Shown here one piece after another: positions 3,816 through 17,902 of a stretch of DNA of 64,000 nucleotides; within the stretch, counting starts at the first letter, position 1; every line of letters starts with the position of its first letter. The notes under the pieces are model-generated. The model searched no databases. It had not been told where the DNA came from and saw only the letters and a list, made by a program, of their open reading frames with translations. This stretch comes from Oscillospiraceae bacterium (GTDB lineage: Bacteria; Bacillota; Clostridia; Oscillospirales; CAG-382): the NCBI GenBank assembly GCA_015064895.1, contig SVRI01000001.1, positions 266,787-330,786 on the forward strand, in the 5' to 3' direction. The position numbers and the translations under genes were made by a program.

Positions 3816-6800
3816 TTATTTAGTTGTAATATCAATTCTGTTGCTCTTTATCTCATACTTATATCCCGTAAGCTCGCAGAATGCGGAAAGCTCTATCATG
3901 GGAAGATTGTCGTAGGAGTAAAGAGGCTTATTGAGCTTGATTTCTCTGCCGTCGGAAAGTTTTACAATGTCACTTCCCTCGGTCCACAAGCTCTTTACAT
4001 TGTCCTTCTGAATCATAAGGGTTCTTGTTTCGGCATCCCATTCGTGATAAATGTGTGTAAGAACGCAGAAGTCACGAAGAGGCTCGAAGGGAACATAAGC
4101 TTTGCCGTCTTCTACCTTTGACTTGTGGTGGCTCTTATAGTGATTTTCGTCAATATAGGTTTCAATTATCTTTTTATCCTTGCCGATAAAGAGGATTTCC
4201 TCAACCTCAAATTTGCCCTGATTATCGCAGGGGTCAAATCTGAACGCCTTGATTCTGCCTTGCCATTTCATGTCGTCGCAGGGCATGAGCACGGCATACT
4301 CGCCGTCGTAGGCTCTTGGAGTAAGCTGCTTGTTATAGTGCCATTCGCCATCCTCGTCCGTAATGTAGTGGCACATGAGGTTGGCGGTTTTTGCCGTGGC
4401 ATTCGAAAAGTCGGAAAGACCGTTCTTTGCACGGATTTTGAATTTGATTATTGCAACATCCTCTGCATCAAAGTCAACTTCTGCTACAAACTTGGGGTCT
4501 GTGCCTGTAGACTCACCGTAGAGTTTGCCGTCGCGAAGTTCTATAAAACCTTCGCCGCTAAAAGTCCACTTGTCAATCTTTTCCTGTGTGTCAAAGTCGA
4601 GCTTTAGTGTAAGCTCACCCTCATCAGAATATGTCTTTTCAAGAAGGGGTGTCTGAATAATGGCACGTGGTCTGGGATAGAGGTAGCCGAGTCTGTCGAG
4701 AGCTTTGCCCGTAGGTCTGTCCGACTCGAAGTCGTCACCTTCGACAGTAAATGCACGTCTTACTTCATTAAGATAGCCAAAGCCGTTGATGTTTGAAGGA
4801 CACATGATAGTACCCTCGCCGTACTCGTTCCATGTAGCGAGCATTACAAACTTCTTTTTCCATGTTTCCTCGTCGTTTTCGTACTTTGAAATGACATCGT
4901 CACGCATCCATGTGAGCATCTGACCGAATTCTTTTTGACTTGTGAATGGCGAGCGGAATTCACGCCATGCAACGTCGTTGTAGCCTACGCAGGCGGTGGG
5001 AACGACGTGGAGCTTATCCTGCTGCATCTGGGACTCGATTCTCGACTTTACATAGTCAAAGCTGTAGCTCTGATGTCCCCAGTTGTATGCGTAAACCGAG
5101 GTGATGCCTGCTCTGTAAAGCTCGTCCGAAGGCTCGCCGCTGGTCATTGTGATAAGACCTGTATAGCCGAGACCTTTGAGTACGTCTTCAAGATATTCCA
5201 TCGCAATCTTGAAGGTTTCGGGACCGCCCATGGAGGCAATGGCCTTGTTAAGACCGAATATGGACAGAACCGCCTTGCCGTCAACACGGTAGTAGTTGGG
5301 GTGGGAGAAGTAGTGGTCAACCCAGTAGGGAACAAGGTACTTCTTGAAGCCGTCAAGGTCCGGACTTGAAGCATTTGCCGCTTCCCAAATGAGGGCAAAG
5401 TTCATTTCGTCGCAGTACTTTGCGTTGAAATATCCGTCGTCAAGAGCACCGCAGATGTGTGTCTTGAATATGGGGGCATCCGTCTGATTGTCAAACCAGC
5501 AGTAGAACTGAGCGTTTACGCCGTGTTCAACCATCCACTTGATTTCCCAGTCGGCAACTTCCGTAAGGGGCTCGTCATAGTAACCGAGGAAGGTTTTGTT
5601 TTCTTCAAAGGAGCTTATTGCGTCCCATCCCCAGTGTTCGCCGTTTCTCCAGAGGGAGCAGACGTTGATGCCTGTGGTGTAGCCGTTTTTCATTGTGGGT
5701 CTTACGGGAGGCTTGGGATAGTCTTCGGGTTCGGGCTGAATAACGAAGGCAAGAACATCGGTAAATCTCATATAGCCGTCCTTTTCGGGAGCGTAGGTTA
5801 TGGAAATACCGTCAAAGGAATCTGCATCAATGTCGAAATCAATTTCACCGCACTTTACGCCGTTGTGCTTGATAAGTGCCTTCTTTGTTGCAGTATCTGC
5901 TTCGATTCTCATAAACTGCCATACGTAAGGAGAGTGCTTTCTGAGAAGTGTACCGCCCGCGCTCTGGGAGTATGTACCTGTATCAACAACAGAAACAACA
6001 TCCTCCTCATCTTTAGTAAGGCACATAATTATATTGTCGCCCTCGCCCTTTGAGAGATACTTGACTTCAAAGCATACCTTGCCCGATACTTCTTCAAAGG
6101 GGTGATAAGCACAGACGGAAGAGCCTTGTGTCGCATGCAGTGCATAGGTTGTTTCGGGTTTACCCTCGTAGTAGGTAGAGGTGAAGGCATTTGCATTACC
6201 TTCGGCATACACAACCCAGTCATCGGGCATATCGGCATGCTGAACGGGATTCCAGTTTCTGTCGCAAACAAGGTAGTTGATATTGAGAACAACCTTGTAA
6301 ATGGTGAATTCGCCCGAGTTCTCGGCTTCATAGCCTGTCTTGAGAGACGAAAGAGAGTTTCCGCTAAGCGGCAGCCATGCACATTCTTTTCCCGAAAGTG
6401 AGAGAACGGCAATTTTTTGGTCTATATCAAATTCGATTGTGATATACTGCATTCCGTAAAGGAAGGGCGCGGGGACAACCGTATCACCCGACACGAGAGA
6501 ATGTCCCTTCTGCTTTAAAGAAAGGGTGACATTGCCGTCGATATCGTAGAAATCAAGATAAAAGCCGTCGCCGCTTTTAAGATGCATGGTGAAGGCAAAG
6601 CTTGCCTTGCCGCTTGTGAGGGGAAGAAATCTTCTTCTGAGGCTTACCGGTGCGTTATGCTCCTTGTCGGTGGAAATGTTAAAGCTTCTGCCGAACTGAT
6701 GAACTACAGGATTGATTGCACCGCGGCTGTCATAGTCCCAGCCTGAGGGTACGGGGTGGTTTGCGGTTCTTACCATATCGTCGTCGATAAGGTAGACGGC

Positions 6801-6970: not shown

Positions 6971-7014
6971 GAACAAATGTTTTTGTGCACACCTACAAAA
7001 TCGAACCCGTGTTC
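6971..7014. promoter_or_regulatory. Two LexA/SOS-like boxes
   Basis: GAACAAATGTTT (6971-6982) and GAACCCGTGTTC (7003-7014); match Gram-positive core GAAC-N4-GTTY. Confidence 0.5.
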
Positions 7015-7024
7015 TAAAAAATCG

Positions 7025-7053
7025 TTGACAAAAGGGTGATTTTGTGGTAAAAT
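7025..7053 (+). promoter_or_regulatory. SigmaA-like promoter of phage-derived cassette
   Basis: TTGACA-17nt-TAAAAT. Confidence 0.75.
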
Positions 7054-7116
7054 ACAGTCACAGAACAAAGAAAGTTCCGGTCATTCGTGTCCGGGATATT
7101 TTTTGCCGGCAATATA

Positions 7117-7128
7117 GAACAAATGTAC
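7117..7128. promoter_or_regulatory. Third, imperfect LexA-like box
   Basis: GAACAAATGTAC; 12-bp tagaacaaatgt identical to site at 6969-6980. Confidence 0.35.
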
Positions 7129-7158
7129 TATATAAAAAGGAGGTGTAAAGCAACATAA

Positions 7159-7335
7159 ATGAGAACCGAAACATTTTCAGGGCACTATACTGTTTGTGCT
7201 CAATGCGGATACAGATTTGAAAGAGGAGATGAAGCACTCAGAATAAAGGAAACGGGGGATATTGTCCATAATGACTGTTATGTGGATTATATGGACGATA
7301 ATGTCACCGAGCTTGCAGAAAAAATTGAGTTTTAG
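7159..7335 (+). CDS. 58-aa small zinc-binding protein (half-LIM-like CX2C-X20-HX2C)
   Basis: Translated by eye: MRTETFSGHYTVCAQCGYRFERGDEALRIKETGDIVHNDCYVDYMDDNVTELAEKIEF; RBS aaggaggtg upstream; below cutoff of supplied ORF track. Confidence 0.75.
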   Translation: MRTETFSGHYTVCAQCGYRFERGDEALRIKETGDIVHNDCYVDYMDDNVTELAEKIEF

Positions 7336-7343
7336 GAGGAAAA

Positions 7344-7730
7344 ATGAACAAGAAAAACGAAAGATTTATTGACCTTGAGCAGAGAATAAACGATTACTTT
7401 TTATATTGTGATGCCGTTAATGAGTCAAAAGAAGAGATGGTGAAGCCGTATACCCTTTCGGGACTGTTGTGTTACATCGGCATTTCAAGACAGGAATTTG
7501 AAAAAATATCAAAGACCAAAAGATACCAAAAGCTCATTTCAAGAGCTAAGTCCAAAATTGAAGCCTTTATAGAGGAAAACGCCCTGACCGGCGAGCTTTC
7601 AATAAGTGCTGCCACAAACAGCTTAAAATACAATTTCGGCTGGGGTGAAAAGGCAGACAGAAATGAATCGGAGGAACATGGACCGTTAACTGTTGTTCTT
7701 TCACCCGAGACACAAGAGTTTGCAAAGTAG
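7344..7730 (+). CDS. Phage terminase small subunit
   Basis: Immediately 5' of TerL; HTH-like N-terminus (TLSGLLCYIGISRQEFEKI) and conserved ...ATNSLKYNFGWGEK tail typical of TerS. Confidence 0.8.
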   Translation: MNKKNERFIDLEQRINDYFLYCDAVNESKEEMVKPYTLSGLLCYIGISRQEFEKISKTKRYQKLISRAKSKIEAFIEENALTGELSISAATNSLKYNFGWGEKADRNESEEHGPLTVVLSPETQEFAK

Positions 7731-7740
7731 GTGATTTTGC

Positions 7741-9048
7741 TTGTCAAATAAAACAAAGCCAAAGCTGAATCTTTCAGGCTTTCCTCAGGAAAAGCAAAGA
7801 ATGTTTTTCCTTGCCGACACAAAATATATAGCCTACGGCGGTGCAAGGGGCGGCGGCAAAAGCTGGGCACTGAGAAGAAAGCTTGTACTTCTTGCACTTA
7901 ATTATGCCGGTATATCCATACTCCTTATTAGGCGAACCCTTCCCGAACTCAGGGATAATCATATAAGACCTCTCACAAAAGAGCTGTCGGGCTTTTGCAA
8001 GTATTCTGCCATGAAGAAGTGCTTTGATTTTCCCAACGGCTCGAGAATACAGCTTGGATATCTCGACAGTGACGGCGACCTTTTGCAGTATCAGGGGCAA
8101 GAGTATGACATTATTGCTCTTGATGAGGCAACCCAAATTACAGAGTATCAGTTTCACACGTTAAAGGGAAGCCTCAGAGGTGCAAACAGCTTCCCGAAAC
8201 GTATGTATATCACCTGCAATCCGGGAGGGGTGGGTCATGCATGGGTAAAACGTCTGTTTATCGACCGCAATTTCAGAGAGGGTGAAAATCCCGACGAATA
8301 CAGCTTTATTCAGGCACTTGTTTATGATAATGAAATATTGCTTAAAAAGAATCCCGATTATCTCAATCAGCTGAAAAGTCTGCCCGAATCATTGAAGCAG
8401 GCATGGCTCTGCGGCAGATGGGACGAATTTGAAGGACAGTTTTTTTCTGAGTTTGATTATTACAAACATACATGTCCCGTGTGTGAAATAAATGAAGATG
8501 TGCGTAAATACTGTGCCATTGACTACGGACTTGATATGCTTGCGGCGGTGTTTGTGGCGGTAGATAATAAGGGAAACTGTGTTGTTTATGATGAAATCCA
8601 CATGGAAAACCTTATAGTCAGCAAGGCTTCAGAACTTATAAAAGAAAAAATGGATGGTGTTTGCATGGTAATTGCACCCTCTGATTTGTGGTCAAGACAA
8701 AAGGATTCAGGCAAAAGCATTGCAGAGCTTTTTTGCGAAAACGGAGTGTATCTTACAAAGCTCAAAAGCGAAAGAATCGGCGGTTGGATGTGTCTTAGGG
8801 AATACCTGAAAAAAGACGGAAAACTTAAGATTATGCGTAACTGTCAAAATCTCATAAGATGTCTGCCTCTTCTTATGCACGACAAGACGAGAATAGGCGA
8901 TGCCTCGACAAAGCCCCATAACATTACCCATGCACCCGATGCTCTCAGATACTTTGCAGTATCTCGTTACAGCGATGTGTTTGCGGAAAATAAGGAAAAC
9001 ACGTCCATAAAGCTTAAAGATAAAATAAAGACAAAGAAGGAGTACTAA
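7741..9048 (+). CDS. Phage terminase large subunit
   Basis: Walker A GARGGGKS, Walker B IIALDEATQ, nuclease motifs AIDYGLDMLAAVFVAVD and HAPDALRYFA; TTG start. Confidence 0.95.
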   Translation: MSNKTKPKLNLSGFPQEKQRMFFLADTKYIAYGGARGGGKSWALRRKLVLLALNYAGISILLIRRTLPELRDNHIRPLTKELSGFCKYSAMKKCFDFPNGSRIQLGYLDSDGDLLQYQGQEYDIIALDEATQITEYQFHTLKGSLRGANSFPKRMYITCNPGGVGHAWVKRLFIDRNFREGENPDEYSFIQALVYDNEILLKKNPDYLNQLKSLPESLKQAWLCGRWDEFEGQFFSEFDYYKHTCPVCEINEDVRKYCAIDYGLDMLAAVFVAVDNKGNCVVYDEIHMENLIVSKASELIKEKMDGVCMVIAPSDLWSRQKDSGKSIAELFCENGVYLTKLKSERIGGWMCLREYLKKDGKLKIMRNCQNLIRCLPLLMHDKTRIGDASTKPHNITHAPDALRYFAVSRYSDVFAENKENTSIKLKDKIKTKKEY

Positions 9049-9049
9049 A

Positions 9050-10819
9050 ATGAGAAGAACAAAAACCTCAAGAACCATTTCAAAATCATCACTCTACGAT
9101 TATTCGGGTGTGCATGAAAGGGAAGAAAGCATAGCGTTTCTTCTTGATTACGCATCAAAGAGTAAATCGTCAACCGAACAGTACTGGAAGAAGATGAGAC
9201 GGTACTATGACGGAAAGCATGATATATCTGCCTCTACCGAAGAATTTGCATTGTCAAGGGAACTTACCTGGACACCGGCCCAATGTACCGACGGTTACAT
9301 TCATGTAGAAAGCCAGATAAACCCTGCTATTCCTGATTTTGAATTTTCACCCAGGGACAGAACAGACTATGACAAGGCAAAGCAGAGGGAAAGAATTGCA
9401 AAGTACATATGTGACAACAATGACATGACCTTTAAAAACTCAAGAAATGAGAGAAATCTCGGAATACTCGGCAGTGCGGTATGGAAGGTTTGCTGGGATA
9501 ACAATGCTCTTTACGGCGAAAGCAGAGGGGATGTTTCGGTGCTTGCACCGTATCCGGATGAAATCTTTACAGATCCTTCGGCTAAGGATGTTGATTCCTG
9601 CGAATATATAGGATACGTTTACAGACTCCATAAGCAGAAGGCAGTAAGAATCTTTGCCGATGATTTTAAGCGTGAAAATACAACCCTTGATGACTATCTT
9701 GACACGTCTTATTTCTTCAACTTAGGTACAAGCCTCAGTTCTGATGAGTATGACTGTGATGAAGACACGGTTAGTGTGACGGAATGGTGGTTCAGACAGC
9801 CGTGTGACGGTAAGGCGGACATAAGACAAAATGACAGAATCGTACATTACGAATGGAAGGCGGGAGATATCGCACTGTCGGTTCTCATAAACGGCAAGGA
9901 AGTAAGATATATTCCCAAATACTGGAAGAAAACAGACTTTGAAAACTTTCCGTTTGTTATATACTCAAGACTTCCGGGTGAAAAATCCATATGGGGCAGA
10001 AGCGAAATCGAGATGATTATTCCCCTTATTGACGCAAAGGACCGAGAGCTTACATACGCACAGCTCAATAACGCTTTTTCGTCAAATGACATAATTATAA
10101 CCGAGGAAAACGCCCTTTGCGACGGAGAAAACCTCGACAATTCACCGGGTGCTGTTTGGAAGGTAAGACCGGGAATGATGGGCAAGGTGGCAAGGCTTGG
10201 CAACATGGCGGCAAGCCAGAATTCCTTGTATTCGGGTGCCATGTACTGGCAGAATCTTATAGAAACCACTACAGGTAACTTTGAAATAAGCCAGGGTAAA
10301 GAGCCTTCAAGCGTAACTACGGCAACAGGTATCGCACTTCTTAATGAGCGTGCCGAGTCGAGAAAGAATCAGAAAAACATTGACAGAAATGCGGGATTTA
10401 AGAGGTTGTTTGAGCTTATAGACAAGACCGCACTTGAATGTTACAGCGACGGAAAGATTGTGAGAATCGGGGCGGCTGAGGACGAAATTGTTTACAAGTA
10501 CGGCGGCTTTGTCAAAAAGACAAGGGAAAGTATGTATATTCCTTCTGTTGACATTACTATTCACACAGGCTCTGCCATCACAAATTCCAAGGCATTTACC
10601 GTTTCTGCACTTACGTCTCTTATCGGTATGAATATAACCGATGATAACTATAAGCTTGTAAAGGCATATGTCGAAACAATCGGTATTCCCGAAAGAGCCG
10701 AAATATGCGAATACCTTGACAAAAAATTCGGCGGCGGTGACGACAGTCAGATTAATTACGATACTATCATGAAAATAATCGAAAACTCAATTATCAAGGA
10801 GGAAAGCGTTAATGAATAA
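9050..10819 (+). CDS. Phage portal protein
   Basis: Position after TerL; size 589 aa; P22-type/large portal-like sequence (FVIYSRLPGEKSIWGRSEIEMIIPLIDAKDRELTYAQLN). Confidence 0.8.
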   Translation: MRRTKTSRTISKSSLYDYSGVHEREESIAFLLDYASKSKSSTEQYWKKMRRYYDGKHDISASTEEFALSRELTWTPAQCTDGYIHVESQINPAIPDFEFSPRDRTDYDKAKQRERIAKYICDNNDMTFKNSRNERNLGILGSAVWKVCWDNNALYGESRGDVSVLAPYPDEIFTDPSAKDVDSCEYIGYVYRLHKQKAVRIFADDFKRENTTLDDYLDTSYFFNLGTSLSSDEYDCDEDTVSVTEWWFRQPCDGKADIRQNDRIVHYEWKAGDIALSVLINGKEVRYIPKYWKKTDFENFPFVIYSRLPGEKSIWGRSEIEMIIPLIDAKDRELTYAQLNNAFSSNDIIITEENALCDGENLDNSPGAVWKVRPGMMGKVARLGNMAASQNSLYSGAMYWQNLIETTTGNFEISQGKEPSSVTTATGIALLNERAESRKNQKNIDRNAGFKRLFELIDKTALECYSDGKIVRIGAAEDEIVYKYGGFVKKTRESMYIPSVDITIHTGSAITNSKAFTVSALTSLIGMNITDDNYKLVKAYVETIGIPERAEICEYLDKKFGGGDDSQINYDTIMKIIENSIIKEESVNE

Positions 10820-11555
10820 CGAATACACAGTTGAAAATGCATCACAACAGCCTAAAGAAGGCGATAACAATACACAGCAGGAAAAGACATTTACCCAGAG
10901 TCAGCTCGAAGAAATCATCCGTGAAAGACTTTTGAGAGAACGAAAGGTAAACGAATCCTTATCATCGGTAAAACAGCTTCTTAAAAGTGCATGCGAAAAG
11001 GGATATATCAAGGGGGCTTCTTATACCGAAATGGCAAAGGACCTTGTCGGAAAGCTGCAGGAAAAACAGCAGGCTGAATGTGATGAAGAGCCCGAAAAGG
11101 ACACAACATCCGTATGCGCAGATACGGACGGAAAAGAAACTGACGGTGATAATGCCGGTAATGACGTAGTGAAGGAAGACGCAGATAATAAGCAAGGCTT
11201 TATGGACACTCTTTCGAGAATCAAGGCAAAGTATCCTAAAAGTGCTGTTGAAAAACTGCTCGAGGGGAATTTGTTTGAAACCTTTGCCAGAGGACGAAGC
11301 GGAAGTGCAGAGGAAATATTTGACGATTACTATACCTTTGTTTCCATGGCAAATCCGGAATTTAAAAAGGCTCAGGATAACACCGACGGCACATTTTCAT
11401 CTACAGCGTTTTCTTCCCAATCGGGAGTTGCTGAAAGCGGCTCAAATCTTACAAGACAGCAGATGGATATAGCGAAAAGTGCAGGAATGTCTTACCGCGA
11501 ATATCAGAATCTTCTGGAATCCATTCCCACAAAAAACGGGAGAGCATTTAATTAA
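10812..11555 (+). CDS. Phage scaffold-like protein
   Basis: Acidic, Gln/Glu-rich coiled-coil (EKTFTQSQLEEIIRERLLRERKV); between portal and capsid; overlaps portal stop. Confidence 0.7.
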   Translation: MNNEYTVENASQQPKEGDNNTQQEKTFTQSQLEEIIRERLLRERKVNESLSSVKQLLKSACEKGYIKGASYTEMAKDLVGKLQEKQQAECDEEPEKDTTSVCADTDGKETDGDNAGNDVVKEDADNKQGFMDTLSRIKAKYPKSAVEKLLEGNLFETFARGRSGSAEEIFDDYYTFVSMANPEFKKAQDNTDGTFSSTAFSSQSGVAESGSNLTRQQMDIAKSAGMSYREYQNLLESIPTKNGRAFN

Positions 11556-11578
11556 AAAAAGAAAAGGAGAAATGAAAA

Positions 11579-12226
11579 ATGAAGTTTTTATATTCACTCG
11601 GCGGCGGTAATATCCCCGTTATCAGAGAATATGATATTGAAGCAAACAAGCAGTTCAAAAAGGGGCAGGTTGTAAAGATTTCACTTGAAGGTGTGATTTC
11701 AACAACTGCTGCAGGCGGCTGCATTGGTATTGCAGCAGAGGACCACACGGCTGAAAAGGATATCCTAAATGAAAGAAACAACGGTACAAAACTGAGAGTT
11801 GACATCACAAGACATGCAGTCTATGAGGTTGATGCACCGAGACTTGTTGCAACAGGCGGAAGCAATACTACTTTTGTTTGTTCTTCCACAGGTCTTATGG
11901 AAAACCTTGAAAATTCGACTCTTGTGCTTGTCCGCAAGGGTGAAAACTCTGAAAACACAGATACTGTTGGTACTGTAAGAAAGGTTTCGTTGATTTCCGT
12001 TTCCAATACATCAGCCACATTTACAATCTCTGACGGCGGCATTGTTTCCGAAGGCGATGTATATGCCCTTATACCCATATGCGGTTTTATGGGCAATGTT
12101 GGCGGCAACGACGGCTCTTTTAAATGTGTAAGCACGATGGATTCAACACCGGCTTTTGTCATGGCTTACAATACCGACACACTTACTCTTGAGGTTATGC
12201 CCAAGAAGGACTTTATTGCTTATTAA
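11579..12226 (+). CDS. Phage head/decoration-type protein
   Basis: 215 aa, beta-rich, located directly before the major capsid gene. Confidence 0.45.
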   Translation: MKFLYSLGGGNIPVIREYDIEANKQFKKGQVVKISLEGVISTTAAGGCIGIAAEDHTAEKDILNERNNGTKLRVDITRHAVYEVDAPRLVATGGSNTTFVCSSTGLMENLENSTLVLVRKGENSENTDTVGTVRKVSLISVSNTSATFTISDGGIVSEGDVYALIPICGFMGNVGGNDGSFKCVSTMDSTPAFVMAYNTDTLTLEVMPKKDFIAY

Positions 12227-12244
12227 GGAAAGGAAGTAGAAACA

Positions 12245-13156
12245 ATGAACGATATTTATACATGGCACAATGACCTTTATCCTCTTATTAAAAAGAGATT
12301 TGACCTTCGTTATGCAAAGCGTCTTGACGCTATCAACCAGGTTTGTGATGTTGTTTGTCAGGATGACATTGACTATAGAATCGAGGGTATCGGCGGCTAC
12401 GGCGAAATGCCGGTATACGACGGTACAACCGTTGTGGGTGCCGACACCAAGAGAACATTTATTACAACAATCACACCCAAGGAGCACGCCCTCAAGGTGA
12501 CAAGTACATATAAAAAGGCAAAGCTCGACTATTCGGGTGAGTCTCAGAAGATAGGTACACGTCTTGCAGACTCTGCATACATGACGGTACTTAACGAGTT
12601 CTACAGACTCTTCGGCTCTGCCTTTACAAACATCGGCTCCGACGGTGTGGCATGGGCAAGCGACAAGCACCCCGTATCAAAGGACAGCAAGGAAACCTTC
12701 TCCAACCTTATGACAGAGAACCTTTCTGTTGCAGCCATCACAAAGGCACAGACAACGGCATCCCGTTTTGTAACTCCCGACGGTCTTCCCTTTGCCTGCA
12801 ACTTTGACCTTCTTCTTGTAAGCCCCGAGCTTGAAGCAAAGGCGAAGGAAATCTGCGGCCCTAATTCCAGACTTATCCCCGAAAACAACCCCGATACAGA
12901 CACAAATGCGGCAAATCCCGTATACGGCATGAAGTATCTTGTTGTGGGCGGCGGTAATGCAGGCTTTACGGGCAAGCAGTGGGCTGTTGCAGACTCTCTT
13001 ATGCTTTCCGAAGTATTAAAGCTCGTCTACATCACAAAGCCCACTGTTCTTGTGTCTCCTCAGGATAATCCTCTTATCACCGATTATATCGGTTATGTGG
13101 ATTTTGCCTTTGGCTTCGGTGATGCAAGACCCATTATCTTCTCTAATCCCAACTAA
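12245..13156 (+). CDS. Phage major capsid protein
   Basis: Position and composition; capsid-like sequence (GADTKRTFITTITPKEHALKVTS..., DTNAANPVYGMKYLVVGG, TDYIGYVDFAFGFGDAR). Confidence 0.75.
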   Translation: MNDIYTWHNDLYPLIKKRFDLRYAKRLDAINQVCDVVCQDDIDYRIEGIGGYGEMPVYDGTTVVGADTKRTFITTITPKEHALKVTSTYKKAKLDYSGESQKIGTRLADSAYMTVLNEFYRLFGSAFTNIGSDGVAWASDKHPVSKDSKETFSNLMTENLSVAAITKAQTTASRFVTPDGLPFACNFDLLLVSPELEAKAKEICGPNSRLIPENNPDTDTNAANPVYGMKYLVVGGGNAGFTGKQWAVADSLMLSEVLKLVYITKPTVLVSPQDNPLITDYIGYVDFAFGFGDARPIIFSNPN

Positions 13157-13167
13157 GGAGTGTGAAG

Positions 13168-13431
13168 ATGATGGGCGGTTATTCCAGAATTCCCGTTAAG
13201 ACAAAAAACGAAGGGGTTATTTCTAACATTGAGTTTGAAATTGACACACAAGGTCTTGACTGTGTTATAAGAGCCGAGGGAACCGACCTTTTTGTTTATA
13301 CAAAATCAGGTGCGGATCAATCTGAAATGTATCTTGTAAAGGACGGCGAAACCTTCGAGTTCTGCGGCAAGATTTACTATCAGGTTGCCACTTCGGGAAC
13401 AGTATATACCTTTATGTATAACAGGCTTTAA
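13168..13431 (+). CDS. Small phage structural protein, unknown function
   Basis: ORF with aaggag RBS inside head operon (ORF track starts at GTG 13162). Confidence 0.5.
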   Translation: MMGGYSRIPVKTKNEGVISNIEFEIDTQGLDCVIRAEGTDLFVYTKSGADQSEMYLVKDGETFEFCGKIYYQVATSGTVYTFMYNRL

Positions 13432-13438
13432 ACAAAAT

Positions 13439-13465
13439 GCCGTCTGCTTCGGCAGACGGCTTATA
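13439..13465 (+). terminator. Intra-operon hairpin terminator
   Basis: gccgtctgc-ttcg-gcagacggc followed by T-rich tract. Confidence 0.7.
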
Positions 13466-13485
13466 TTTTAGAAAGGAGAAATGAA

Positions 13486-14406
13486 ATGTCAGAAAAAACA
13501 TACGGAACATTGAAAAAAAGAGTTTTCGACCTTCTTTTTGAGTATGCCCCCTCTGATGATACGGTTTTTATTGCCGACACAGACAAACAGCTTGTTTCTT
13601 CGAGAATGCCCGATGCGGTTAATTCTTCTTTTGTAAGAATGAGTGAGTCTCTTCCGTTGTGGACAAAAACGAGTATTCAAAAGCTGCATGATTTCAAAAA
13701 GGTTTTTACATATAACGGCATTTGCGATAAAGACACTCCGCTTGAGTTTGAGCTGACGGTTGACAGAATAGGTGTTTTCTTCAGGTTTTTCGGCAAGGGT
13801 AATGTAATTTTTTCGGACATGGATGGCAATCCTGTTTTGACAATTGAATGTGAGGGCTCAGGAAGCATCTCGTGCCATAAGAGTGTTGAGAATACGGACT
13901 ATACCGGTACTTGCCGTGTCTACACTGACGGCAACTTGTGTGTCAAGGGTTTTGCTGTTTATGAAAATGACTCAGAGCTTGACGAAAAAAGCCTTTGTGC
14001 CTTTAATGAAACAAGCTTTGAATTGCCGGAAGCGTTTGACAGACTTGTAAGTATAGAAGCTTCTTCGGGGAAAATAAACCGTGACAAAATATATGTCTGC
14101 GACGGATACGGATTTATATGCTCTGATTTGTGCAGGGGAGAAAACGAGCTTTGTATAGAGTATAAACGTAAGCCGTATACAGTTGGTGCACAAACGGCTG
14201 ACGATTTTGTGTTTGATGTAACGCACCTTGAATTTGAAGCACTTGTTTGCCTTGTTGCAAGTGAACTTTGCAGAGATGAAAACGCCGACTTATATGCAAG
14301 ACTTGTGTATAAATACAACGACCTTTGCGAGGGTATCAGAAGCTGTAATGTGTCAAAAAAAGGAAGAAACACCTTCTTTGGTGCAAAAATAAGACGGAGG
14401 TGGTAA
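13486..14406 (+). CDS. Phage head-tail connector-like protein with embedded beta-rich domain
   Basis: C-terminal LEFEALVCLVASELCRDENADLYARLVYKYNDLCEGI resembles adaptor/connector helices; middle ~110 aa beta-rich. Confidence 0.45.
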   Translation: MSEKTYGTLKKRVFDLLFEYAPSDDTVFIADTDKQLVSSRMPDAVNSSFVRMSESLPLWTKTSIQKLHDFKKVFTYNGICDKDTPLEFELTVDRIGVFFRFFGKGNVIFSDMDGNPVLTIECEGSGSISCHKSVENTDYTGTCRVYTDGNLCVKGFAVYENDSELDEKSLCAFNETSFELPEAFDRLVSIEASSGKINRDKIYVCDGYGFICSDLCRGENELCIEYKRKPYTVGAQTADDFVFDVTHLEFEALVCLVASELCRDENADLYARLVYKYNDLCEGIRSCNVSKKGRNTFFGAKIRRRW

Positions 14407-14407
14407 A

Positions 14408-16198
14408 ATGGCATATCTACCCTTGAGCTTTGTTCCAAAGAATAAAAAAAGCTTTAAGAATGTTAACTACAGACTGCCTGTGGGCGGGGTAAGTCTTTCG
14501 GATAACACAAGGAATGTTGACGAAGGAAAGTGCAGTTATATGTGCAATATGGATATGCTTTCCGACAGAATAAAAAACCGTGTTTTGCAGGAGATGGTAT
14601 GCCATGGTTTTGCCGCTGAAGAAAAAATCAACGGATATTTCAAAAGCCGGTTTTATGATAAGCTTGTTTTCCATGCGGGAACGCATTTGTACTTGTTTGG
14701 CTCGGGTGATGAAAAACCGAGCATCATAGCAGATAATCTGCCGGATAAACCAAGCCTTTTCTGTATATTTCTGTCGAAAATCTATATTTATTGCGATACG
14801 CATGTTTATACTCTTGACAGCGAATTTAACTTTGCCGAGGAATTGCCCGATGCACCCCTGATTTACGAATCCTGCGTTGCCAACGTCAGATATTCGGGCA
14901 AAAGAACCGAGCTGCCCTTCAATCTTTTGGCACCGAGAATTACGGTTTCCTATTCTCAATGTACCAACCGCACATTTATTCTGCCGCAAAATGCGGATGT
15001 AAAACGCGGTGCTGTGGTATATAAAGACGGAGAGGAAATGCCGTGTGATGAATTTGAGCTACATGAAGATTATCTTGAGATTTCTGACGGTCACGGTGCC
15101 GTAAACAGACTTGTTTCTTTATCTTATTTTGTGAGTGAGCCTGAAAAAATGGAGTTTGAAAATGTAATTGCCGATTGTGAGCTTATTGCGGATTTCGGCG
15201 GAAATGCCGAGGGTGGTACAAGATTGTTCTTTACAGGCAATAAGAACAAAAAGGGCTATTACTATAAAAGCGATTTTCTTAATCCTTTGTATGTTGCCGG
15301 CGACGGCTTTGAAATCATTGGCAACGGCAGTGAAAATATTACGGCTTTAAAGAAAATGTACGGTAATATGATTGTATTTACCGAGCAAAGCGTCTTTCGC
15401 ATGGGATACACCCTGGATAAAGACGGTTCGTTCTTTTCTGTCAAGGAGCTGAGCTCTGAGGCGGGATGCGATTGTCCCGATTCTGTTCAGCTTATAGATA
15501 ACAGAGTGGTGTTTGCCAACTCAAAAAAGGGTGTTTTCATAATAGAATCAACCGGTGAAAACGGCGAACAGAATATAAAGCCCATATCGGGAAATATACT
15601 GAAAGGCAATGGCATGGGGCTTTGTGATATTCCTACAGAGGCTTTGAAAAAGGCAAAATCCATTGACTTTGACAGAAAATATATGCTCTTTGCTGACGGT
15701 AAAGCATATATCTGGGACTATGATGAGGCCGGTTTTTCGGGAAGTTCAAACTATTCAAGAGCAGAAGAACGCCTTAAGTGGTATATTTATGACGGCATTC
15801 TCGGAAGTGAATTTGTAGAGGTTGACAGAAGCCTTTTGTCCTTTGATGAAACAGACGGTGTGCGTATTTTCAGGTTTAATGAAGATGTGAAAAAGTCCGA
15901 TTGTGAAGGTGTGTTTTACTCGGGAAACTCGGTTTTATTTGCACCGAAAAAGAGAAAGCATGTGTACAGCATGAGTATTAAGTTGTCAAGAAGTGATAAT
16001 TGCGATATCACCCTCGGATTTTTCGGCGACGGTGAAAAATACTATGAAACAAAACTTCCCAAGTGTGAAAAGAATAAGGAAAAAATCATAATGAAGCTTC
16101 CCAAAAAGGCTCTTTATGACTTTGCTTTTTCAATAAAAGCATGCGGTGAATATGAAATACAGGATATAGCCTTCGGCTATTACGAAATAAAAGAGTAA
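14408..16198 (+). CDS. Phage gp10/packaged-DNA-stabilisation-like (propeller-like) protein
   Basis: LPVGGVSLSDNTRNVDEGKCSYMCNMDM start, repeated YGNMIVFTEQSVFRMG / RVVFANSKKGVFII blades; position after connector. Confidence 0.5.
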   Translation: MAYLPLSFVPKNKKSFKNVNYRLPVGGVSLSDNTRNVDEGKCSYMCNMDMLSDRIKNRVLQEMVCHGFAAEEKINGYFKSRFYDKLVFHAGTHLYLFGSGDEKPSIIADNLPDKPSLFCIFLSKIYIYCDTHVYTLDSEFNFAEELPDAPLIYESCVANVRYSGKRTELPFNLLAPRITVSYSQCTNRTFILPQNADVKRGAVVYKDGEEMPCDEFELHEDYLEISDGHGAVNRLVSLSYFVSEPEKMEFENVIADCELIADFGGNAEGGTRLFFTGNKNKKGYYYKSDFLNPLYVAGDGFEIIGNGSENITALKKMYGNMIVFTEQSVFRMGYTLDKDGSFFSVKELSSEAGCDCPDSVQLIDNRVVFANSKKGVFIIESTGENGEQNIKPISGNILKGNGMGLCDIPTEALKKAKSIDFDRKYMLFADGKAYIWDYDEAGFSGSSNYSRAEERLKWYIYDGILGSEFVEVDRSLLSFDETDGVRIFRFNEDVKKSDCEGVFYSGNSVLFAPKKRKHVYSMSIKLSRSDNCDITLGFFGDGEKYYETKLPKCEKNKEKIIMKLPKKALYDFAFSIKACGEYEIQDIAFGYYEIKE

Positions 16199-16210
16199 AG
16201 GAGAATGATT

Positions 16211-16732
16211 ATGGCAAATCTTTGGAAATATGCATCTGTTCCCCAAAGGGAAAGACTCGACATGATAAGAAGCGGAAATGCTGATGTGTACAATGCTGAA
16301 AAGCGTCGAAACAACTCTCTCAAGATTTTAAGAGAATCCCTCGGTCTTTCAACACAGAATGTCGATGACTGGAATAAAACGGTAGATAACGCGTACTCCC
16401 TGTCGCAGCAAAAAACACAGGATAAAAGCGGTCTTCCAAAGTTTACGGGCGGCAAGTATGCAGAGATTAACAAGGCATTCAGCGAATCAATTAAAAACGT
16501 AAGACAGCAAAAGGACGAAAGCATAAAAGATGTGACAGAGGAAGCCGAAAGCACCTTAAGATACATCGGGGAATGGCTTGCCAATAACGGTTATTCCGAA
16601 AAGGGATACCTTGCAACTGCGGCAAAAAAGGAAATCAATGATGCACTTGAAGCGGCTCTTGAGGGCATTATTAAGGACTATGAAGAGGGTATCCAAAGTA
16701 TAAGAAGCAGGTTCCGTTCCATGGTTATGTGA
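16211..16732 (+). CDS. Helical phage-associated protein, unknown function
   Basis: ORF with aaggag RBS directly after the gp10-like gene; long alpha-helical composition. Confidence 0.5.
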   Translation: MANLWKYASVPQRERLDMIRSGNADVYNAEKRRNNSLKILRESLGLSTQNVDDWNKTVDNAYSLSQQKTQDKSGLPKFTGGKYAEINKAFSESIKNVRQQKDESIKDVTEEAESTLRYIGEWLANNGYSEKGYLATAAKKEINDALEAALEGIIKDYEEGIQSIRSRFRSMVM

Positions 16733-16746
16733 TGTTTTGCAAATCT

Positions 16747-16775
16747 TGACAATGTATGATTAAAGTATTACAATA
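16747..16775 (+). promoter_or_regulatory. SigmaA-like promoter at 3' end of phage cassette
   Basis: TTGACA-17nt-TACAAT. Confidence 0.65.
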
Positions 16776-16783
16776 GGAGTAGA

Positions 16784-16998
16784 AAAACTCTGCGTTCTAT
16801 GATGATTACCGTCAGAGAAAATCAAAGGATTCTTCTCAAAATTCAACGTCGCTTTTTTCGAATGCAATTAAGAGTTCGTTTGACGGCATCAAAAAGAACA
16901 TTTTGGAAAATGCAGAGCATTATTCCAAGACGGATAAGGCAAAAACTGATACTGCCAAACGTAAGGGAAATGCCATTAAGAGCAATATTCAGAAGTAA
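16784..16998 (+). pseudogene. 3' remnant of a phage structural gene (no start codon)
   Basis: Frame reads KNSAFYDDYRQRKSKDSSQNSTSLFSNAIKSSFDGIKKNILENAEHYSKTDKAKTDTAKRKGNAIKSNIQK*, preceded in frame by TAG. Confidence 0.5.
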
Positions 16999-17053
16999 CA
17001 TACGTTAACATTGGAAAATATATTAAATAATCAGAATTATTCAGGGGGTTAAT

Positions 17054-17902
17054 ATGCAGACTTCAAAGAGTAAATATGTTATTGCTTTGTTTGTTTTAAC
17101 CATATCGTTTTTGTGTTCGTCCTGCTCAGAAACAAAAGTGACAGAAACAAAAGTGGCAGAGAAGAAAAACGAATACCGTCTCGTCACACCGACTCAGGAA
17201 GAACTTGATGAAATTGTGCCTCGGTTAGAACCGATTTTGTCGATGTTTCACAAGGATTATGACTGCACAAAAGATAACATTTACGAGTATATGTTTCACT
17301 ATGACCACTTGGATTATGTTTATCCGGAATATGACTCCGAGATTGAAGCGTTTGTAGCTGAACCGTTCGGGGTATCTGATGCAGGTTTTGTGTTTTGGTA
17401 TGAATATGGAATTCCCGAGAATGATCCTCTTGGAAAATTCCCGAAAATACGTGATGAAATATATGATGAAAACGGAAATGTGAACGAAGACTTGGCATGG
17501 GATTTGCTTGAAACCCAAGATGTGTATTACCGTGATTTGATAATAGGGCATAATAAATTTTCAGGAAAGTATATAGACTGGTTGGTCGAGGGCATATGGA
17601 ACGGAAAGGCTGACCACAAAAGCTTTATGAAGTTTGAAGACGAAACAAGGCTTTATTACTACGACGGATTTTATTACACCCCGGAATGTGTTGGTGACAG
17701 GGGCGGCGGAATATTCTACTACCCTAAAATCCACAATATTACTCCTTTGGAAGACGGTAAGTATGAAATAGTATATCAGCTTTACAATGATGGAGATGAA
17801 TATGTTGCTGCAAACAAGGCGGTTGTCGGATTAAAAGAAATATCTTCAGGCTTCCGGTTTTGGTCGATTTTCAGTATTGATTATGACATAGACAAGGCAT
17901 AA
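17054..17902 (+). CDS. Lipoprotein, unknown function
   Basis: Signal peptide with lipobox LCSSC; RBS gggggtt; 282 aa. Confidence 0.8.
   Translation: MQTSKSKYVIALFVLTISFLCSSCSETKVTETKVAEKKNEYRLVTPTQEELDEIVPRLEPILSMFHKDYDCTKDNIYEYMFHYDHLDYVYPEYDSEIEAFVAEPFGVSDAGFVFWYEYGIPENDPLGKFPKIRDEIYDENGNVNEDLAWDLLETQDVYYRDLIIGHNKFSGKYIDWLVEGIWNGKADHKSFMKFEDETRLYYYDGFYYTPECVGDRGGGIFYYPKIHNITPLEDGKYEIVYQLYNDGDEYVAANKAVVGLKEISSGFRFWSIFSIDYDIDKA

What the first reader, a model, noticed from the sequence alone, without database searches (positions are those of the whole stretch)
7025..16998. Compact, tail-less phage head/DNA-packaging cassette under its own promoter
Seen: eleven consecutive intact same-strand genes (58-aa Zn protein, TerS, TerL, portal, scaffold, head protein, capsid, small protein, connector-like, propeller/gp10-like, helical protein), closely packed with RBSs, and TerL motifs intact. 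No recognisable tail, lysis, integrase, replication or repressor gene lies between flanking non-phage genes. Knowledge: capsid-forming phage satellites (cf-PICIs) also carry head/packaging genes without tails, but they normally carry integrase and replication genes. Inference: a domesticated or satellite-like particle-forming system, or a selectively preserved prophage remnant. The open frames over ~9.5 kb argue against old neutral decay.
Basis: partly seen in the sequence, partly recalled or inferred. Interest (0 to 1): 0.78.

Follow-up and report, generated by a model that had tools for sequence, protein, structure and literature searches.

The report
SOS-controlled, inherited phage-like particle genes
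A gut bacterium carries a compact, intact set of phage head and short-tail genes that is passed down with the chromosome and wired to the bacterium's own DNA-damage switch, so it most likely makes a gene-transfer-agent-like particle for the host rather than being a dead virus; close cousins (FpGTA in Faecalibacterium) were described in 2026.

Summary
The eleven-gene cassette is real (7159-16732). It is not tail-less: structure prediction identifies the "connector" as a podovirus head-tail adaptor and the "propeller" as a P22 gp10/T7 gp12-type nozzle, so it encodes a head plus a short-tail core. Its TerL occurs in 35 of 37 genomes of the host family. The same cassette ("type A") is in all 14 genomes of four genera, at a mostly fixed chromosomal place inside a genus, under purifying selection (dN/dS 0.03-0.33 in unsaturated pairs), with gene trees matching recA at genus level. 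No complete phage carrying it was found. Every one of the 14 loci has a LexA (SOS) operator just upstream; in this genome a like operator precedes lexA and dinB. Best reading: a domesticated, SOS-induced, gene-transfer-agent-like element of podovirus type. Closest known system: FpGTA I of Faecalibacterium (2026), with the same gene order and homologous TerL and portal, but capsid and TerS unrelated by sequence. New here: breadth in another family, direct LexA control, and a cell-wall-hydrolase/toxin family whose N-terminal domain was found only in carriers of this cassette. DNA packaging, release and delivery are inferred.

The parts
6971..6982 (+). LexA (SOS) operator-like box GAACAAATGTTT, identical to the box before lexA in relative G002
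7003..7014 (+). perfect LexA box GAACCCGTGTTC, the only perfect one in the 64-kb window, just upstream of the -35
7025..7053 (+). sigma-70 type promoter TTGACA-17-TAAAAT with extended -10 TG
   Evidence: consensus match
7117..7128 (+). third LexA-like box GAACAAATGTAC (1 mismatch)
7159..7335 (+). 58-aa Cys-containing (Zn-type) protein, conserved first gene
7344..7730 (+). small terminase TerS (GP3_package family)
7741..9048 (+). large terminase TerL, ATPase and nuclease motifs intact
9050..10819 (+). portal protein (P22/SU10 type)
10812..11555 (+). scaffolding protein
   Evidence: phrog_2303, E 9e-5; position
11579..12226 (+). 215-aa protein between scaffold and capsid; head decoration protein by position (inference)
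12245..13156 (+). major capsid protein, 90-97% identical within the genus
13162..13431 (+). 89-aa protein of unknown role, recognised in 8 of 12 relatives
13486..14406 (+). head-to-tail adaptor of podovirus type (SU10, N4, KHP30) with an inserted carbohydrate-binding-like beta sandwich
14408..16198 (+). short-tail nozzle/hub (P22 gp10, Sf6 gp8, T7 gp12 fold)
16205..16732 (+). helical protein; 174-188 aa in some relatives, 365-468 aa in others; internal/ejection protein by position (inference)
16762..17010 (+). probable start-less, truncated remnant of the SH3/CHAP lysin gene that follows the cassette intact in G002
   Evidence: weak similarity, E 7e-5 to 0.017
17054..17902 (+). lipoprotein whose homologues follow the SH3-hydrolase genes in G002 (53%) and G008 (32%); immunity-like by position (inference)

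Best explanation
A domesticated phage structural cassette that works as a gene-transfer-agent-like element. Under DNA damage, RecA-triggered LexA cleavage would free the operators at 6971/7003/7117, and the promoter at 7025 would transcribe the eleven genes. Scaffold, portal and capsid would build a small head; TerS/TerL would pump DNA in; adaptor and nozzle would close it with a short podovirus-like tail. With no replication, integration or repressor genes at the locus, the DNA packaged would be host chromosome, as in FpGTA, and the element persists by vertical inheritance. Shown: the genes, predicted folds, operators, conservation, selection and co-inheritance. Inferred: LexA binding and induction, packaging of host DNA, release (lysin encoded elsewhere in this genome) and delivery.
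For: Intact cassette in fixed gene order in the 14 genomes of four genera (G001 ends at a contig edge after TerL) and in three genomes of a second family. Mostly the same chromosomal site within a genus: AddA upstream and GFO/GH78 downstream in g1, FBP aldolase in g3, rplJ region in three of four g8. Same genus clades and Mantel r 0.76-0.88 against recA. dN/dS 0.03-0.33 in unsaturated pairs. A LexA box upstream in 14 of 14 loci; 23 perfect boxes against 0.1 expected in 17 upstream regions. A like operator before lexA and dinB in this genome. No capsid match among 50,697 phages, and only contigs of 4-9 kb among 2.9 million viral contigs. Same architecture as FpGTA I, whose particles carry about 9 kb DNA by experiment (PMC12946183). 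GC 0.40-0.45 equals most of the surroundings.
Against: No packaging, particle or transfer data for this organism. TerS looks as if it keeps a DNA-binding N-terminus (own reading of the sequence, not tested), while FpGTA TerS is described as lacking one, so packaging could still be selective. No receptor-binding or lysis gene was found in this genome, although the whole genome could not be scanned. Different genera hold the cassette at different sites and it occurs in a second family, so some movement between lineages happened. Capsid and TerS are not detectably homologous to FpGTA.
Confidence: 0.68

Rival explanations
1. SOS-induced killing particle (PBSX- or tailocin-like in purpose): the particle, or an SOS-induced protein associated with it, attacks related cells with cell-wall hydrolases or toxins and protects the producer with immunity lipoproteins; DNA transfer is secondary or absent.
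For: A family of proteins with one N-terminal domain and variable C-terminal domains (CHAP, M23, Ntox44, ParB-like) occurs in only 4 of 396 genomes of the order, all carriers of this cassette. It is directly downstream of the cassette in G002 and under its own LexA boxes in G003 and G008. Downstream lipoproteins are shared with the window.
Against: Several C-terminal domains are plain peptidoglycan hydrolases, which fits an ordinary lysis enzyme. Nine of 13 carriers tested lack the family. Nothing shows loading into the particle.
Confidence: 0.15
2. Defective prophage remnant that keeps its head genes by chance or recent decay.
For: Phage-derived genes only; no integrase, replication or lysis genes at the locus.
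Against: The same truncated set in the genomes of four genera, low dN/dS, no frameshifts, syntenic sites, host SOS operators.
Confidence: 0.07
3. Capsid-forming phage satellite (cf-PICI-like) that borrows tails from a helper phage.
For: Head and packaging genes without fibres or lysis genes.
Against: No integrase, replication or regulatory genes in the flanks; the element carries its own tail adaptor and nozzle; mostly fixed sites and co-divergence with the host.
Confidence: 0.05

Closest known systems
FpGTA I of Faecalibacterium (PMC12946183, Nat Commun 2026)
   Same: About 10 kb and ten genes in the order TerS, TerL, portal, scaffold, capsid, small, adaptor-size, propeller, small, helical; isolated in the chromosome without replication genes; one TerL match in six of seven Faecalibacterium genomes examined and two in the seventh; TerL 32% identical and portal homologous
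   Different: Capsid and TerS not detectably homologous; FpGTA-like scaffold is fused to a Prp protease; here direct LexA operators and an extra decoration-like protein; no FpGTA II-like fibre/holin operon found here. The Faecalibacterium loci were identified by a published 16S primer and gene content, not by accession
Rhodobacter-type GTAs (RcGTA) and other GTA viriforms (PMC9662315)
   Same: Phage-derived, endogenised, co-diversifying with hosts
   Different: RcGTA is a siphovirus-like tailed particle (own knowledge) under the activator GafA (abstracts of PMC6363796 and PMC9638019); here a podovirus-type short tail and LexA operators
PBSX of Bacillus subtilis (own knowledge, and as discussed in PMC12946183)
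   Same: SOS-induced, vertically kept phage-like particle in a Gram-positive host
   Different: PBSX is a larger tailed cluster with its own lysis genes; gene content differs
cf-PICI satellites (own knowledge)
   Same: Own head and packaging genes
   Different: No integrase or replication module here; own tail adaptor and nozzle; mostly fixed sites

Membership tests
Gene transfer agent (definition in PMC9662315) | Caudoviricete-derived structural proteins | tested here: met
   (protein similarity; no particle image)
Gene transfer agent (definition in PMC9662315) | Fully endogenised in the host genome | tested here: met
   chromosomal flanks on both sides, same in an independent relative
Gene transfer agent (definition in PMC9662315) | Mostly vertical inheritance and co-diversification with hosts | tested here: met
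   same genus clades and Mantel r 0.76-0.88 vs recA; deeper branches not resolved
Gene transfer agent (definition in PMC9662315) | Encapsidates mostly random host DNA | not testable with these tools
   needs sequencing of DNase-protected DNA
Gene transfer agent (definition in PMC9662315) | Own genome too large for the head | not testable with these tools
   capsid size unknown; cassette is 9.6 kb versus 8.4-8.9 kb packaged by FpGTA
Gene transfer agent (definition in PMC9662315) | Delivers DNA to other cells | not testable with these tools
   no experiment
FpGTA | Homologous TerL and portal in the same gene order | tested here: met
   TerL P 100, 32% id; portal P 94, 21%; order
FpGTA | Homologous capsid protein and TerS | tested here: not met
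   no hhalign match above 30% probability
FpGTA | Second operon with fibre, holin and endolysin | tested here: inconclusive
   a lysin lies beside the cassette in G002 and SOS-controlled hydrolases elsewhere in G003 and G008; none of that family in the window's genome
cf-PICI satellite | Integrase and replication genes with the head genes | tested here: not met
   none among genes beside the cassette; sampled flanks in relatives are housekeeping or carbohydrate genes
Inducible complete prophage | Tail fibre, lysis, integrase and repressor genes adjoining | tested here: not met

The most novel reading that the evidence does not exclude
The cassette makes an SOS-induced short-tailed particle that carries or co-acts with a dedicated family of polymorphic cell-wall toxins: the N-terminal domain, found only in carriers of the cassette, would be a loading or targeting module, variable C-termini the active parts, and the lipoproteins downstream the immunity proteins. 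This would be a podovirus-derived counterpart of contractile toxin-delivery machines used between bacteria.
Probability: 0.12. Interest if true: 0.88.

Novelty: new variant of a known kind. Interest (0 to 1): 0.64.

Why it matters
GTAs are known from few lineages and the first podovirus-type one was reported only in 2026 in Faecalibacterium. This shows TerL-defined cassettes in nearly every sampled genome of another family of the same order, in two structural types, with the type studied here wired directly to LexA-type operators. It predicts that DNA damage in these gut bacteria releases particles, a test that needs only a cultured carrier, and it links the cassette to an SOS-controlled hydrolase/toxin family.

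Tried and rejected
Satellite or prophage-remnant readings (no integrase, low dN/dS, synteny). The ORF 16799-17008 as a gene: rejected, alternate frame of a remnant. Truncation of the helical gene: rejected, close relatives have 174-177 aa. Type B cassettes as the same element: only TerS, TerL and nozzle are homologous to type A; portal, scaffold and capsid do not match by hhalign. A first 16S-primer search in the wrong family found nothing. The capsid profile against PDB gave no relative. GAACN4GTTC elsewhere in the genome: nearly all sites seen lie inside genes. PADLOC gave nothing.

Full report
Observation. The eleven genes are present and intact. TerS, TerL, portal and scaffold match known families; the capsid matches weakly (phrog_371 E 4e-4, Mu-like gpT below cut-off). 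A Terminase_6N search of this 2.28-Mb genome finds a single copy, here.

Not tail-less. AlphaFold models of the 306-aa and 596-aa proteins are confident (pLDDT 85.5 and 86). The first matches podovirus tail adaptors of phages B2, SU10, N4, Moo19 and KHP30 (TM-scores are modest), with an inserted sandwich resembling carbohydrate-binding modules; in genus g8 most of that insert is missing. The second matches P22 gp10, Sf6 gp8, SU10 and T7 gp12 nozzles (best E 3e-19). The cassette therefore encodes a head and the core of a short tail; no fibre or receptor-binding gene was recognised.

Distribution. TerL is in 35 of 37 genomes of the host's family, usually one copy, and in 141 of 299 sampled genomes of the order at E<=1e-40. 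Two cassette types exist in the family. Type A, the window's, has zn-TerS-TerL-portal-scaffold-head-capsid-small-adaptor-nozzle-helical in the 14 genomes of g1, g3, g6 and g8 (G001 ends at the contig edge after TerL, and the 89-aa gene was recognised in 8 of 12 relatives). Type B, in most other genera, shares TerL (52%), the nozzle and TerS but has another portal, scaffold and capsid. Type A also occurs in three genomes of a second family (L150-L152) and a more distant version in G098 of a third.

Synteny and vertical descent. In g1 the cassette follows AddA and, where seen, precedes the GFO/GH78 genes. In g3 it lies near FBP aldolase, in g8 G010 near rplJ (with two further g8 loci sharing those flanks) and in G021 near ruvC. 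So the site is mostly fixed within a genus and differs between genera. Trees of recA, TerL, portal, capsid and nozzle give the same four genus clades; distance matrices correlate with recA at r 0.76-0.88, p 1e-4. Branching between genera is poorly supported in recA and is not claimed.

Selection. For pairs with unsaturated dS (G035/G029, G008/G034) dN/dS is 0.03-0.05 for capsid, 0.09-0.11 for TerL, 0.08-0.10 for portal and at most 0.33 for any gene. In g1 dS is saturated for many genes, so ratios there are only indicative; capsid and head genes have lower dS than their neighbours, which may reflect recombination or codon bias.

LexA control. A perfect GAACN4GTTC box begins 22 bp before the -35 in the window and is the only one in 64 kb. 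All 14 type A loci have at least one perfect box some 600-925 bp before TerL; 23 perfect boxes lie in 400-bp upstream stretches of 17 loci against 0.1 expected, and two of the three second-family loci have one too (in three loci the first ORF start is ambiguous, so boxes fall outside that stretch). Genome-wide, the related pattern AGAACNNNTGTTT occurs at 8 sites; the four clear promoter sites precede lexA, dinB, a phage-type gene (phrog_15768) and this cassette. LexA was found in every type A genome searched, RecA likewise, and most lexA promoters of type A relatives carry GAACN4GTTT-like boxes. Binding and induction are not shown.

No phage relative. The capsid has no match in 50,697 phage records; the portal has 21-23% matches in three. 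In IMG/VR only four contigs of 4-9 kb match capsid or portal; one includes the chromosomal WbsX gene, so it is bacterial, and one (L164, 34% portal) looks like a real phage fragment with a similar portal-scaffold-head-capsid run. The pattern-based search can miss distant phages.

Comparison with FpGTA. Borodovich et al. (PMC12946183) describe FpGTA I in Faecalibacterium: a 10.5-kb, ten-gene operon, podovirus-like, about 40-nm particles with about 9 kb DNA, plus a second operon with fibres and lysis genes. Faecalibacterium genomes were found here with a published 16S primer; each has a TerL match, and locus L148 shows ten genes in 10.3 kb in the described order. Type A and these loci share TerL (P 100, 32%) and portal (P 94); the nozzle is marginal (P 67); capsid and TerS do not match. 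The link of these loci to the published FpGTA I rests on gene content, since the accession could not be opened.

Associated hydrolases. In G002 a 465-aa SH3+CHAP protein follows the helical gene directly. Its N-terminal domain recurs in G003, G008 and G020 with different C-termini (M23, Ntox44, ParB-like and others), and only there among 396 genomes of the order, all type A carriers (two genera, so not four independent events). LexA boxes precede the G003 and G008 genes. The window has a weak remnant of the domain and homologues of the lipoproteins that follow these genes. Either release enzymes of the element or a toxin family tied to it would explain this.

Verdict. A domesticated, SOS-controlled, GTA-like podovirus cassette, a new variant of a kind first reported in 2026. 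The functional steps beyond sequence are inference.

Noticed in passing
L024 (rc 13679-15076); L180 (rc 4202-5710); L182 (rc 8171-10168); L181; L183: Family of proteins with one N-terminal domain and variable C-termini (CHAP, M23, Ntox44, ParB-like), with LexA boxes upstream in G003 and G008, found only in carriers of this cassette
   Followed up: partly
13439-13460: Strong terminator-like hairpin (9 pairs, 7 GC) between the 89-aa gene and the adaptor gene; could lower tail expression relative to the capsid
   Followed up: no
G000:C22:28178 (L118): A phage-type gene (phrog_15768) under two LexA-like boxes at another site of the same genome
   Followed up: partly
12245-13156 versus neighbours in g1: Capsid is 90-97% identical in g1 while the adaptor is 32-42%; possible recombination of the capsid or fast diversification of tail parts
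   Followed up: partly
L032-L059: Type B cassettes: a second, equally compact cassette type in most other genera of the family, syntenic within several genera, mostly without LexA boxes nearby (exceptions g10 and G030)
   Followed up: partly
L161 (IMGVR_UViG_3300024268_003959): A chromosomal fragment with this cassette and the WbsX gene is catalogued as a virus in IMG/VR
   Followed up: yes
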